From: Lysobacter soyae
GTDB lineage: Bacteria > Pseudomonadota > Gammaproteobacteria > Xanthomonadales > Xanthomonadaceae
Direction: 5' to 3'
NCBI RefSeq assembly: GCF_019551435.1
Contig: NZ_CP080544.1
Location: 1,798,001 to 1,862,000 of the forward strand
DNA length: 64,000 nucleotides
In this document: positions 19,842 through 63,133 of the stretch, piece after piece
Position numbering within the stretch: position 1 is the first letter of the stretch
Layout: each line of letters begins with the position of its first letter
The notes under the pieces: generated by a model
Told to the model about the DNA's origin: nothing
What the model saw: only the letters and a program-made list of their open reading frames with translations
Database searches by the model: none
Translations under genes and position numbers: made by a program

Positions 19842-19953
19842 AGCGCCTAATCCGGCGCTTCGCGCCACCTTCTCCATCGAAGATGGAGAAGGGAGAAGCT
19901 TTCCCTTCTCCACGCAGTGGAGAAGGTGCCCCTTCAGGGGCGGATGAGGCGCT
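19842..19953. repeat. REP-like composite palindromic element (copy 3)
   Basis: The left unit is AGCGCCTAATCCGGCGC-ttcg-CGCCACCTTCTCCATC and the right unit ends GTGGAGAAGGTGCCCC, CGGATGAGGCGCT. The two units are inverted and carry different internal G/C stems. It fills most of the gap between coaE and the Nudix-ThiE gene. Confidence 0.87.
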
Positions 19954-19983
19954 TCTAAAGGCGCTTCCAAAGGCCACCCAAAA

Positions 19984-21009
19984 ATGATCCACGTCATGGC
20001 CGCCCTAATCACCGACCCCAAAGGTCGAATCCTCATGGCCCGCCGTTTGATCGGCCGAGATTTCGCTGGCTACTGGGAATTCCCCGGCGGCAAGGTCGAT
20101 CCCGGAGAATCCCCCGAAGCCGCGCTCGCCCGTGAGTTGAAAGAAGAGCTGGGCATCAATGCCCGCATCGACGAAGCGGTGATGTTGGTTCCGCAACACG
20201 CGCCCAAAGCGCTCAAGCTCGATGTGCGTTGGGTGCGGCATTGGACCGGCACACCTAAGGGATTGGATGGCCAAGCATTGGCCTGGGTGCCCCGAGCGAA
20301 GTTAAACCAGTACGCAGTGCCGCCACCGGATGTCCCGGTGATTGCCCATTTGCTGACACCCGATTTGGTGTGGATCACGCCGGCGCTTGAGGATGTCGGC
20401 GGGTGGGACGCGTGGTTGTTGGAATTGCAGCGCGTGTTGGCGCTCGAGGTGAAGCGGGTGCAGTTGCGGCCTTGGAAGAGCGCCTCATCCGCCCCTGACG
20501 GGGCACCTTCTCCACTGCGTGGAGAAGGGTTGGATTTCCCCCTCTCCATCTCTGATGGAGAGGGTGGCGCGAACGCGCCGGGTGAGGCGCTCCTCGCCCT
20601 CCAATTCGCCATCGCCCTCTGCAAATCCGCCCAAGCCGACGTCGCCCTAAACGGCAACCTCGATCTCGCCCTAGCACTCGATTGCGGACTGCATCTCAAA
20701 TCCCATCAACTCGCAACGACTGACATCGAAGCCTTTAAATCACAGAACCTCCCCGTCAGCGCCTCTTGCCACAACGCCGACGAGTTACAGCGCGCGCACG
20801 CGCTCGGTTGCACTTATGCCCTGCTCGGCCCTGTCGCGCGGACACAAAGCCATCCCAACACGCCGCCCATCGGCTGGCCTGAATTCTTCAACATCCGCGG
20901 GCACGCGCCCGCACTTCCTACTTATGCGTTGGGCGGCATGACACCCGCGCACATCGCCCTAGCGCGCAGTTATGGCGCGCAGGGCATCGCAACGATCAGC
21001 GGGATTTGA
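19984..21009 (+). CDS. mutT: Nudix hydrolase (MutT-like) fused to a thiamine-phosphate-synthase-like domain
   Basis: The 341-residue protein has an N-terminal MutT domain (1-~135) with the full Nudix box between residues 36 and 58: GGKVDPGE, then ARELKEELGI. This would hydrolyse 8-oxo-dGTP. The C-terminal domain (~205-341) resembles the ThiE TIM barrel, with SASCHNADELQRAHALGC, YALLGPVARTQSH and YALGGMTPAHIALA. Such Nudix-ThiE fusions are known in gammaproteobacteria and probably do not make thiamine. Residues ~166-203 are the translation of a palindromic repeat (copy 4) placed exactly in the interdomain linker, in frame. The C-terminal domain role is uncertain. Confidence 0.88.
   Translation: MIHVMAALITDPKGRILMARRLIGRDFAGYWEFPGGKVDPGESPEAALARELKEELGINARIDEAVMLVPQHAPKALKLDVRWVRHWTGTPKGLDGQALAWVPRAKLNQYAVPPPDVPVIAHLLTPDLVWITPALEDVGGWDAWLLELQRVLALEVKRVQLRPWKSASSAPDGAPSPLRGEGLDFPLSISDGEGGANAPGEALLALQFAIALCKSAQADVALNGNLDLALALDCGLHLKSHQLATTDIEAFKSQNLPVSASCHNADELQRAHALGCTYALLGPVARTQSHPNTPPIGWPEFFNIRGHAPALPTYALGGMTPAHIALARSYGAQGIATISGI
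20479..20591. repeat. REP-like composite palindromic element inside the Nudix-ThiE gene (copy 4)
   Basis: The left unit is AGCGCCTCATCCGCCCC-tgac-GGGGCACCTTCTCCAC and the right unit CCTCTCCATC...GATGGAGAGG, then GGTGAGGCGCT. The reading frame passes through the whole element without a stop and resumes a recognisable ThiE-like domain, so it is predicted to be translated. Confidence 0.9.
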
Positions 21010-43978: not shown

Positions 43979-44329
43979 GTGCGGAGCCGGCCGATAAGCC
44001 GGGTTCTGTCGTGGACAATCATTCGTCTAGGCTTTGTGTCACCACAAAACTCAAGCAACCTACCCGGAGACACTGCGGGCCGCAGCATAGCCTCCCTATT
44101 TGGTCTTGCTCCCGATGGGGTTTGCCGTACCGGCCGGTTGCCCGGCTCGCGGTGCGCTCTTACCGCACCATTTCACCCTTACCGTTCTGCCGAAACAGAC
44201 TTAGGCGGTATCTTTCTGTTGCACTTTCCGTCGGCTTTCACCGCCCAGGCGTTACCTGGCATCGCGCCCTATGGAGCCCGGACTTTCCTCGACGCTTGCG
44301 CGCCGCGATTGCCTGGCCGACTCCGCGCC
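43979..44329 (-). ncRNA. rnpB: RNase P RNA, bacterial class A
   Basis: On the minus strand the RNA begins with the P1 strand GCGGAGTCGGCC and ends with its partner GGCCGGCTCCGC (one G-U pair). Universal core segments are present: GAGGAAAGTCCGGGCTCC near the 5' end, AGGGTGAAATGGTGCGGTAAG in the middle, and ACAGAACCCGGCTTATCGG at the 3' end. Length, about 350 nt, fits class A. It cuts tRNA 5' leaders with the RnpA protein. It lies between rsmI and mraZ, an order seen in other gammaproteobacteria. The rsmI stop is only ~10 bases upstream, so its promoter lies in rsmI. Confidence 0.97.
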
Positions 44330-59179: not shown

Positions 59180-62100
59180 TCAGGCCAGTGCCTTGCGTGC
59201 GTTTTGGAACATACGCATCCAAGGCGAACGGTCCTTCCACTCAGGCGGATACCAAGAGAAGTTGGCGGCGCGCAGCGTACGTTCCGGATGCGGCATCAAA
59301 ATGGTGGCACGTCCATCGTCGCTGGTGACACCGGCCATACCACCCGGAGAACCGTTCGGATTTTCCGGGAACAAGGTGGCCACGTCGCCATTGCCGTCCA
59401 CAAAGCGCAGCGCCACACCCACCGAGTTCATCGCGGTGTCATCCGCAAAGGCCATGCGCCCTTCGCCATGCGCCACGATGATGGGCAGTTGCGATCCGGA
59501 CATGCCGTCAAAGAATTTCGACTGCGACGCTTCGATCACGACCTGGGCCAAGCGCGCTTCGTACTGTTCGCTCTTATTGCGCAAGAGCACCGGCCAATGC
59601 GTCGCACCCGGGATGATGTCTTTCAGTTGCGAGAGCATTTGGCAGCCATTGCAAGCACCCAGGCTCAGCGTGTCATCACGATCGAAGAACTGCGCAAACA
59701 TGTCGCGCAGTGCCGGACGTTCGAGAATCGACGTGGCCCAACCACGACCCGCACCCAAGACATCGCCATAGCTGAAACCGCCACAGGCGGCGATGGCTTT
59801 GAAGTCGATGAGGTCATGACGCCCGGCTATCAAATCGCTCATGTGCACGTCGACGGCATCGAAGCCGGCACGCATGAATGCCGAAGCCATTTCGACATGA
59901 CCATTGACGCCCTGCTCGCGCAAGATGGCAACACGCGGCTTCGCGCCCAACGACAACATCGGTGCGGCCACGTCTTCGCCCAAATCGTAGGTCAATTTGG
60001 GGCGCAGACCCTTTCGGGTGAAGTCGCGCTTGAGGTCGAATTCTTCGTCGGCCGATTGCGGGTTGTCGCGCAACTTTTGCATGGCATGGGTCACCGACCA
60101 CCAAGCGTCGAACAGCGATTCCCACGTCCATTCCGCGAGCGTCTTGCCACCGGCTTCGACGCGAATGTCGTCAGACGTGCTCGGCTTGGCAATGCGTTGC
60201 GCGCATTCGATCAACCCGTGACGCGCCACCATGTCGGCAAATGCGGCGCGATCTTCCGCGCGGATTTGGACGATGGCGCCAAGCTCTTCGTTGAACAGGA
60301 CTTCGAAGATGTCTTCATCGCTGCCGTCAGTCCACGCGTCGAGATCGATGTCGAGGCCGCAATGAGAGGCGAAAGCCATTTCGCACAAAGCGGTGAACGC
60401 ACCACCATCCGAACGGTCGTGATAGGCGAGCACCAAGTTGTTCGCACGCGCTTCATTCATCAATTCGAAGAAACCGCGCAACAACGAAGGGTCATCAACG
60501 TCGGGAACGCGATCTTCGGTGCCGGAGCCACCGAAGCCTTCATACACTTGGGCAAGAATCGAACCGCCCAAACGGCGCTGGCCAGCGCCGAGGCCGATCA
60601 ACCACAGTTCGGTCTCGGGTTCTTTCGCAAGCAACGGCGTGAGTTGCGCATGGACATCCTCGACCGGCGCGAACGCGGTGACGATCAGCGACACGGGTGA
60701 GACCACATTGTGCGTCCCCGACGCATCGCTCCACTGCGCTTGCATCGACAAGGAATCCTTGCCGACGGGAATGCTGAGGTCGAGGTCGGGGCACAATGCC
60801 ATGCCGATAGCTTGCACGGCGTCATACAGGAGTGCGTCTTCGCCCGGGTGACCGGCTGCCGCCATCCAGTTCGCCGACAGCTTCACGCGATTCAAGGCCG
60901 ACACCGGTGCGGCACACAAATTCGTAATCGCTTCACCGACCGCCATCCGCGCGGCTGCCGCCGAATTGATCAGCGCCAACGGCGTGCGTTCGCCGATCGC
61001 CATCACTTCACCGGCGTTGCCTTCGTAGCCGGCAAAAGTGATCGCGCAATCGGCAACCGGCATCTGCCACGGACCGACCATCTGATCACGTGCCGTGAGG
61101 CCGCCCACCGTGCGATCACCAATCGTGATCAAGAAAGATTTGGACGCAACCGTCGGATGCGACAACACGCGCAGTGCGGTTTCGCGCAGGTCGAGCTTGC
61201 CGGTATCCAATACCGCCCAAGCGGTTTCCGCCGGCCATTGCGTATCCCGATGCATCTTCGGCGCCTTGCCGAACAACACATCCATCGGCAAGTCAATCGC
61301 CCACTCAGTACCCCCTTCTCCACTCCGTGGAGAAGGTGCCCGCAGGGCGGATGAGGCGCTCTGTCCAGATGAGGTGCTCTCAACCCGAGCCCCATACCCC
61401 ACCACCAACCGCTCCTCCTGCGTCGCATGACCCACGACGCCGAACGGACAACGCTCGCGATGGCAAATGGCGGCGAACTCGGCCACACGATCGGCTGGAA
61501 TACCCAGCACATAGCGCTCTTGTGATTCGTTGCACCACAACTGCATGGGTGACAGCGACGGATCGTCACTCGGGACATGATCAAGATCGATCACGCCGCC
61601 GACACCCGAGTCATGCAGCAGCTCGGGGATGGCGTTCGACAATCCGCCGGCACCGACGTCATGCACCGAACGAATCGGATTGCGCGCGCCCAAGGCGACG
61701 CAGGCATCGATCACTTCTTGCGCGCGACGCTCCATTTCGGCGTTGTCGCGCTGCACCGACGCGAAGTCCAGCGCCTCGTTGCTTTCACCGGAGGTGACCG
61801 AACTGGCCGCACCGCCGCCAAGTCCAATCAACATGGCCGGCCCGCCCAACACGATCACGGCGTCACCGGGGGACAGACGGCGCTTCTCGACCAAAGCACG
61901 ATCAATGCTGCCGAGTCCACCGGCCAGCATGATCGGCTTGTCGTAGGCGCGGATCAGGCCGGGCTTTTCGACGACTTCGAAGGCGCGGAAGTAGCCGGTC
62001 AAATTGGGCCGGCCGAATTCGTTATTGAAAGCGGCGGCGCCGATCGGGCCGTCGAGCATGATTTCGAATGCAGAGGCCATGCGCGGATTCAACGCGCGCT

Positions 62101-63133
62101 CCCCTTCCCATTCGCGTTTCAAGCCGGGCACGCGCAAGTGCGACACCGAGAATCCGGCCAAGCCGCCCTTGGGTTTGCCGCCACGACCGGTGGCGCCTTC
62201 ATCGCGAATCTCGCCGCCGGCACCGGTCGCCGCACCGGCAAAGGGTGAAATGGCGGTCGGGTGGTTATGCGTTTCCACCTTGATGGCGAACGCCGACGGC
62301 TGCATTTCGGTCAGGTGATAGACGCCGCTGGCACCGTCGATGCGCAAGTTGCGCGTTCCGTAACCCTCGACAACCGCCGCATTGTCGCTGTAGGCCGACA
62401 AGGTGTACTCAGGCGTTTTCGCATGCGTGTTCTTGATCATGCGGAACAGCGATTGCGGCTGTTCACGACCGTCGATCGACCAAGTCGCGTTGAAAATCTT
62501 GTGGCGGCAATGCTCGGAATTCGCTTGCGCAAACATCATCAATTCGACGTCGTGCGGATCGCGGCCTAGCGCTTGAAAGCGGTCTTTCAAATAGACGATT
62601 TCATCGTCCGCCAACGCCAGACCAAGGCGCGCATTCGCGGCCTCGATGGTTGCTACGGGAACAACCTCCAGGGCCTGGCGTTCGGGCACCTCAAACAGGC
62701 GCATCGCCGCTTCCGCGCTGGCATGCACGGATTGGGTCATGGGGTCGTGCAGCACGTTTTGCAGTGCCTGTTGGGTCGCCGCATCCGACGGCCAATTCAA
62801 CAGATCCAGACGGGTGCCGCGTTCGACACGTTGCACCGCGAGATTTGCGCCGTGAAGCAGTTCGGTGGCCTTGCTCGACCAAGGCGAAATCGTGCCGACA
62901 CGTGAGGTGACAAACAAGGACGTGGCATCGGCCGCGGCCGGCTCAGCTTCGGGCTTCGCCTGCAGGATGCGCTCGAGAACCGGGAGCGACACGTCGGCCG
63001 CATCCTTTCGCAGTACCCAATACGTGTGCCAAGCGCCCAGGATACGGACGTCGGGATGGATGGTTTGCAGGCGCGCCTGCAGTCTCTCAAGCCGGAACGG
63101 CGACAGGGCCGACTGGCCCTCGAGCACGATCAT
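59180..63133 (-). CDS. purL: phosphoribosylformylglycinamidine synthase (large fused PurL)
   Basis: The 1317-residue enzyme makes FGAM in purine synthesis, using glutamine. The N-terminal domain is followed by two PurM-like halves: [37 protein letters not shown] and [17 protein letters not shown]. The second half has [14 protein letters not shown] and [19 protein letters not shown]. The C-terminal glutaminase has nucleophile Cys in [11 protein letters not shown] and PHPERTLR. E. coli PurL has 1295 residues. Residues ~584-608 are the translation of a palindromic repeat (copy 7) in the loop before [16 protein letters not shown]. The frame is intact on both sides. Confidence 0.97.
61311..61380. 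repeat. REP-like element inside purL (copy 7) with a short tandem duplication
   Basis: On the minus strand AGCGCCTCATCCGCCC-tgc-GGGCACCTTCTCC with stem TCTCCAC/GTGGAGA spans 61360-61311. At its outer end GATGAGGCGCTCT is repeated imperfectly as GATGAGGTGCTCT (61350-61362 and 61369-61381). The purL frame runs straight through it. Confidence 0.9.

What the first reader, a model, noticed from the sequence alone, without database searches (positions are those of the whole stretch)
61311..61380. Palindromic repeat inserted in frame in purL
Seen: a unit of the dispersed palindrome family lies inside purL, adding about 25 residues (~584-608) just before the conserved [16 protein letters not shown] segment, without breaking the frame. 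Known: Rickettsia palindromic elements insert in essential genes in this way and are translated. Inference: this lineage has a repeat that is tolerated, or selected, as a peptide insert in an essential purine enzyme. The short duplicated GATGAGG(C/T)GCTCT at one end may be a trace of insertion.
Basis: partly seen in the sequence, partly recalled or inferred. Interest (0 to 1): 0.75.

Follow-up and report, generated by a model that had tools for sequence, protein, structure and literature searches.

The report
Mobile palindromes translated inside enzyme PurL
A short repeated palindrome has landed, in frame, in the flexible joint of an essential purine-making enzyme; relatives across the bacterial family carry other repeats in the same joint, which makes it a natural landing site for such DNA.

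Summary
A 50-nt unit of a two-hairpin palindrome family lies in frame at window 61313-61362, inside purL (59180-63133, minus strand). The genome holds at least 74 units in 45 clusters. The nearest sister (PurL 90% identical) lacks the insert and nearly all of the family: one 26-nt fragment there, no match in 7 other congeners searched. So the family spread, or was acquired, and entered purL after that split, unless the others lost it.

The unit sits in the joint between PurL's two FGAM-synthetase halves, where solved PurL has 9 residues. At least four other proteins of this genome carry units in frame, between domain matches or in an early loop.

Across Lysobacteraceae the same joint holds other repeats. 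Of 30 perfect stems of 10 bp or more within PurL proper (126 frames, not all independent), 20 fall in residues 580-619. Four repeat types with dispersed copies at home occur there (two share a layout), and proteins 98% identical around the joint differ in the repeat.

Best reading: REP-like elements insert widely and the flexible joint tolerates the peptide. In-frame REPs are known; this recurrence in PurL was not among the papers my searches listed. Selection for the insert is not shown.

The parts
59180..63133 (-). purL, phosphoribosylformylglycinamidine synthase, 1317 aa, frame intact
   Evidence: 59 of 60 relatives searched have a match; solved PurL chains match residues 2-577 and 612-1316
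61313..61362 (+). palindrome unit inserted in frame (antisense to purL), about residues 591-607
   Evidence: profile hit E 1.7e-13
61314..61336 (+). first hairpin: 10-bp arms 61314-61323 and 61327-61336, loop TCC
   Evidence: read; 10-bp stem
61338..61348 (+). second hairpin: GCCC / GCA / GGGC, one base per arm shorter than the nearest copy (C1:219505)
61368..61380 (+). half-copy GATGAGGTGCTCT, 18 nt downstream of the unit's own GATGAGGCGCTCT
   Evidence: 1 of 74 units
19948..21006 (+). open frame of a NUDIX-ThiE fusion that holds a pair of units in frame, after the NUDIX match and just ahead of the TMP-synthase match, which starts at profile position 48 of 180 (so probably an early loop of the ThiE-like domain)
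   Evidence: sister without it L182
20477..20592 (.). inverted pair of units (minus then plus) inside that frame

Best explanation
The insert is one copy of a REP-like, two-hairpin element family that multiplied in this lineage after its split from G011, or was acquired since. A copy entered purL at the joint between its first and second FGAM-synthetase halves. The unit reads through without a stop and the joint is flexible, so the enzyme keeps working with 16 extra residues. Insertions elsewhere in such genes are purged. Survivors therefore collect at joints and loops, and the PurL joint of Lysobacteraceae is a recurrent one, reached by several repeat types. Shown: family, near-absence in the sister, position, recurrence. 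Inferred: transposition as the route (mobilizer unknown), translation of the insert, neutrality.
For: Family and copy number. Sister G011 without insert. Family nearly absent from the genus: of 8 congeners searched, G011 has two overlapping 26-nt matches at one place and 7 have none. Joint position. Four further proteins with units in frame. Perfect stems of 10 bp or more in 126 PurL frames: 51 in all, 21 ahead of the window's start position, 20 in residues 580-619, 10 in the rest. Stem score 9 or more: 23 of 45 long linkers against 17 of 675 same-length windows of purL; 2 of 75 short linkers against 6 of 1125. Dispersed copies of other inserted repeats in their own genomes. Sister pairs differing in the repeat: G105/G061 295/300 and 294/300 identical around the linker with different repeats; G029 against L088 287/300 and 289/300, with and without. 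In the five own proteins both orientations and more than one frame are used, although ValS and the mutase share one reading (LLHxVEK).
Against: No proteomic or enzyme data. No mobilizer is tied to the family: the genome's only Y1_Tnp match is flanked by other inverted repeats. A DNA search of the linkers that ignores frame finds 13 distinct type-A units, 13 of 13 in one orientation and one frame, which suggests shared ancestry, orientation bias or selection for that part of the record. Type-G palindromes are not dispersed and type E was not tested. The AlphaFold model is weak (mean pLDDT 60.5).
Confidence: 0.77

Rival explanations
1. Selection for a structured mRNA stretch or a longer linker at the domain boundary, for example to slow the ribosome while the first half folds.
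For: Long linkers are rich in hairpins (23 of 45), and some are the most stable windows of their own purL frame (L029, L147, L098 and L112: none of 119, 100, 128 and 120 windows as stable).
Against: 75 of 120 distinct linkers are short and 2 of those 75 hold such a stem. In one search many long linkers are unremarkable within their gene (for example L163 48 of 50, L033 115 of 115 windows as stable). In the window's gene the linker is only modestly structured (z -1.4, 10 of 121 windows as stable; z -1.56).
Confidence: 0.1
2. One ancient insertion in an ancestor of most Lysobacteraceae, later lost, eroded or overwritten by gene conversion from each genome's own repeats.
For: 13 of 13 type-A units found by a frame-blind search share orientation and frame. 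In three genomes the purL unit has the first-stem form of the other copies shown from that genome, which gene conversion would also give.
Against: The window's unit is in the opposite orientation, of a family nearly absent from its sister. Type D in G029 and type F in G060 are different repeats with dispersed copies at home. The tree needs at least 8 forced changes for A, 5 for F, 4 for E, although changes can be losses.
Confidence: 0.13
3. A DNA-level target preference of the mobilizing enzyme makes the purL joint a hotspot.
For: Same short stretch hit in many lineages; a mild pyrimidine bias upstream of the units in this genome (T at -2 in 41 and at -3 in 39 of 73 rows read); one orientation for type A.
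Against: Different repeat types land there, the junctions differ between lineages, and other multidomain proteins are hit between domains too, which points to a filter on protein function.
Confidence: 0.08
4. Sequencing or assembly artefact.
For: None found; reads are not available.
Against: One-contig genome, 99.91% complete; open frame of 1317 aa; comparable inserts in separately assembled genomes.
Confidence: 0.01

Closest known systems
Intragenic REPs (GTAG and CGTC families; BMC Genomics 2013 14:522, PMC3733652; section 15 read in full, passages elsewhere)
   Same: Small dispersed palindromes, mostly between genes, sometimes in frame inside genes; [quoted passage not shown] campestris and X. 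oryzae.
   Different: These units bear neither a GTAG nor a CGTC end tag. PurL is not named in the main text (supplements not read). Here different repeat types share one site over many genera.
Rickettsia palindromic elements (RPE)
   Same: Palindromic repeats inserted in frame in protein genes (as described in PMC3733652; original paper not held).
   Different: No sequence comparison with RPE was made; the host lineage differs. Works like an RPE, not filed as one.
BIME / REPIN (paired REPs; names recalled)
   Same: 19 of 45 clusters are pairs, 18 of these 19 in inverted orientation, and 5 are triplets.
   Different: The purL copy is single; no RAYT gene is tied to the family.

Membership tests
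REP (repetitive extragenic palindrome) | Small palindrome in many dispersed copies | tested here: met
   At least 74 units in 45 clusters; two hairpins in about 52 nt
REP (repetitive extragenic palindrome) | GTAG or CGTC tag at one end (the two large superfamilies of PMC3733652) | tested here: not met
   In the 74 rows printed the units mostly start CCTTCTCC or CCCTCTCC and end GG(A/G)TGAGG-CGCTCTT
REP (repetitive extragenic palindrome) | Mainly extragenic | tested here: inconclusive
   5 of 45 clusters found inside recognisable proteins (purL and four more). Of 30 frames sent to Pfam, drawn from those listed, 24 gave no match and 6 did; in two of the six (PilS-like kinase; a sub-cut-off antitoxin match) the units lie ahead of the matched domains. 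No gene annotation was available
REP with RAYT transposase (REPtron) | Y1_Tnp gene flanked by the same repeats | tested here: not met
   One PF01797 match, C1:1485827; its flanks hold a different inverted repeat; the nearest listed unit of this family is about 14 kb away
Rickettsia palindromic element | In-frame insertion in protein genes | tested here: met
   purL frame intact with insert; sister without
Rickettsia palindromic element | Sequence homology to an RPE class | not tested
   RPE sequences were not fetched
Rickettsia palindromic element | Translated in the cell | not testable with these tools
   Needs proteomics

The most novel reading that the evidence does not exclude
The inter-half joint of PurL in Lysobacteraceae is a family-wide safe harbour for mobile palindromes: unrelated repeat families arrive, are replaced and are translated there again and again, so the joint is continually rebuilt from selfish DNA, and the hairpins may have been co-opted to time folding of the two halves.
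Probability: 0.3. Interest if true: 0.8.

Novelty: new member of a known kind. Interest (0 to 1): 0.6.

Why it matters
It gives a clean natural experiment. One lineage holds at least 74 palindrome units that its sister almost wholly lacks, and at least five of its proteins took the peptide at joints or loops, so cost or benefit can be measured with the sister as control. The PurL joint shows how repeated selfish DNA becomes protein sequence, and it marks a position where PurL accepts long inserts.

Tried and rejected
Chance palindrome: rejected. Target-site duplication as a regular scar: rejected (1 of 74). Own Y1_Tnp as mobilizer: not supported. Known structured RNA: Rfam at gathering thresholds over the window gives only RNase P. 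All long linkers being dispersed repeats: not so for type G (in G195 a self match, its inverse and one weak match elsewhere; none in G120). Type E (GGGATTGGGG-like arms, partly Xanthomonas) was described but not tested for dispersal. mRNA-structure selection: weak. AlphaFold on residues 200-1000: mean pLDDT 60.5; the blocks over the insert score 38 and 39, but 300 of 801 residues are under 50, so it is not used as proof. One search was mis-aimed (it held PurL sequence beside the insert) and is not used. Paper searches: the 12-20 top results listed in each showed no report of repeats in purL; longer result lists were not seen and supplements could not be read.

Limits of counts: only 40 of 54 candidate stretches were scored, so 74 units is a lower bound. 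Match counts include the purL copy itself and, for some, short matches to the opposite arm. The 30 genomes were chosen because their PurL match was split, so fractions of long linkers are biased upward. About 75 of 289 matched genomes had split matches (counted by hand from the printed table). Three of 140 loci gave no anchors and were left out. L117 was mis-anchored and relabelled. Several loci are the same genome; identical rows were merged, but partial and full copies of one gene may both remain, so rows are not all independent. My earlier list of type-A loci was picked by peptide and could not test the frame; one search repeats it on DNA without regard to frame (it misses L117 and L147). 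would miss diverged relatives of the family.

Full report
What is there. The window lies at C1:1798001-1862000 of a one-contig, 2,135,137-base genome. purL is 59180-63133 on the minus strand, 1317 aa. At 61313-61362 it holds a unit CCCTTCTCC-AC-loop-GT-GGAGAAGG-TG-second hairpin-GGATGAGG-CGCTCT. In the coding strand this gives ...[16 protein letters not shown]... between VVGYGA and [15 protein letters not shown].

The family. A search with 110 bases around the unit gave 70 matches in the own genome, self and opposite-arm matches included; 40 of 54 candidate stretches were scored. A profile search of the window and fetched stretches gave 74 units in 45 clusters: 21 single, 19 pairs (18 inverted), 5 triplets. 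The nearest copy (C1:219505) is 96% identical over 50 nt; the purL copy is one base shorter in each arm of the second hairpin. The ends of the units are well kept and carry neither a GTAG nor a CGTC tag. In G011, the nearest sister, a 65-base query of the family finds two overlapping 26-nt matches at one place and nothing else; in the 7 other congeners searched it finds nothing. The expansion is thus particular to this lineage, or the family was lost from the eight others, at the sensitivity of that search.

The empty site. G011 PurL is 90% identical and 1300 aa long. Its linker is VGYGANIDAVYGEGKTGWAIDL, ours [38 protein letters not shown], 16 residues more. The 15 other rows of the genus in the tree have linkers of 18 or 22 residues between the same anchors. 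Against solved PurL chains the matches run 2-577 and 612-1316, leaving residues 578-611 opposite positions 598-606 of the chain shown (6jt9). That is the joint between the first and second FGAM-synthetase halves (domain assignment recalled from general knowledge of PurL). The predicted model has low confidence there, but also in much of the rest.

Other proteins hit in the same genome. Thirty open frames that hold a unit, drawn from those listed, were sent to Pfam; 6 matched. In three the unit lies between domain matches: an IcmF-type mutase (name recalled; unit between the MeaB match and the best mutase match, C1:1337019), ValS (between the catalytic and anticodon-binding matches, C1:1869825), and an open frame with two ketosynthase domains (three units, C1:338489-338653). 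In a fourth, a NUDIX-ThiE fusion (two units, window 20477-20592), the units follow the NUDIX match and precede a TMP-synthase match that starts at profile position 48 of 180, so they probably lie in an early loop of the ThiE-like domain. In the other two (PilS-like kinase; a sub-cut-off antitoxin match) the units lie ahead of the domains and may be untranslated. G011 has the four corresponding proteins without the repeat peptide. Its two ketosynthase domains are also joined in one frame, so that fusion is older than the repeats. Both orientations and more than one frame are used among the five proteins, but ValS and the mutase share one reading.

The same joint in other genera. In 140 loci with a PurL frame (3 gave no anchors), 120 linkers are distinct: 75 short, 45 long. 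Of the long ones 23 hold a hairpin with stem score 9 or more, against 17 of 675 random windows of the same length elsewhere in the same genes; for short linkers it is 2 of 75 against 6 of 1125. Mapped along 126 distinct PurL frames, perfect stems of 10 bp or more number 51: 21 lie ahead of the window's start position, 20 in residues 580-619 and 10 in all the rest. The genomes were picked for split matches, which inflates the share of long linkers but not the contrast with other windows; some rows are near-identical or from one genome.

Which repeats. Type A (peptide [15 protein letters not shown]) shares its layout with the window's family, but lies in the other orientation. It has 54, 12 and 11 matches in G128, G019 and G061, the purL copy and opposite-arm matches included. 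Of the copies shown that fit the pattern, 9 of 9 in G128 and 3 of 3 in G019 have the long first stem of their purL copy, and 5 of 5 in G061 the short one; second hairpins vary. Type D has 19 matches in G029. Type F has 15 in G060 and 3 in G206, self included. Type G forms perfect stems of 12 to 15 bp in three of its four rows but is not dispersed. Type E was not tested. Sister proteins differ: G105 and G061 are 295/300 and 294/300 identical on either side of the linker, yet one holds type F and the other type A; G029 (type D) and L088 (none) are 287/300 and 289/300 identical. On a FastTree tree built without the linker columns, the eight labels need 34 changes; starred branches force at least 8 for A, 5 for F, 4 for E and 4 for G. 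Changes may be losses.

Results against a simple story. A search of the linker DNA that ignores frame finds 13 distinct type-A units, all 13 in the same orientation and frame; only the window's own unit is reversed. Shared ancestry, an orientation bias or selection may therefore explain part of type A; I raised the rival of ancient insertion slightly for this. Outside PurL, type-A copies of the same genomes also lie in open frames of a glycine dehydrogenase (L219) and, between the E3-binding and catalytic matches, of a 2-oxoacid dehydrogenase acyltransferase (L225; not compared with relatives), so PurL is not unique. The mobilizer is unknown: the only Y1_Tnp match is flanked by other repeats.

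Literature. REPs inside genes, their possible neutrality in flexible linkers, and REPs at about the same site in recB of two Xanthomonas species are in print (PMC3733652; section 15 in full and passages). The words purL, purine and Lysobacter do not occur in its main text. Seven searches of the held library listed no report of repeats in PurL among the top results shown; most subscription papers are not held.

Verdict. A true, in-frame, lineage-specific insertion of a REP-like palindrome in a PurL joint that repeatedly receives such elements. The kind is known; the member, the recurrence and the sister contrast are new to me. Whether any insert is useful remains open.

Noticed in passing
window 20477-20592: An inverted pair of the same units lies in frame in a NUDIX-ThiE fusion gene; G011 lacks it.
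   Followed up: yes
L120 (C1:338489-338653): Two ketosynthase-domain genes are joined in one frame here and in G011; in G006 and G003 the first ends in a stop codon. In this genome three palindrome units form the junction.
   Followed up: partly
L175 (C1:1484327-1487650): The only Y1_Tnp gene is flanked by an inverted repeat AAAAGGGGGTCAGAGTGACTT; much the same sequence stands beside a palindrome unit at C1:471484, so it is probably a second repeat family.
   Followed up: partly
upstream of purL in 21 of 126 frames: Perfect stems of 10 bp or more just ahead of the PurL start position in many relatives, perhaps terminators or repeats of the preceding intergenic region.
   Followed up: no
PurL variable loops near residues 787 and 848-914 of L020, L025, L028, L029, L030: Further stretches with extra residues in some relatives; few stems fall there in the stem profile.
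   Followed up: partly
window 43979-44324: RNase P RNA, bacterial class A.
   Followed up: no
family units in the own genome: Two sub-forms go together: CCTTCTCC with GGATGAGG (43) and CCCTCTCC with GGGTGAGG (23), 1 mixed and 7 of 74 not readable, although these segments are not the two arms of one hairpin; this may reflect recognition by the mobilizer.
   Followed up: partly
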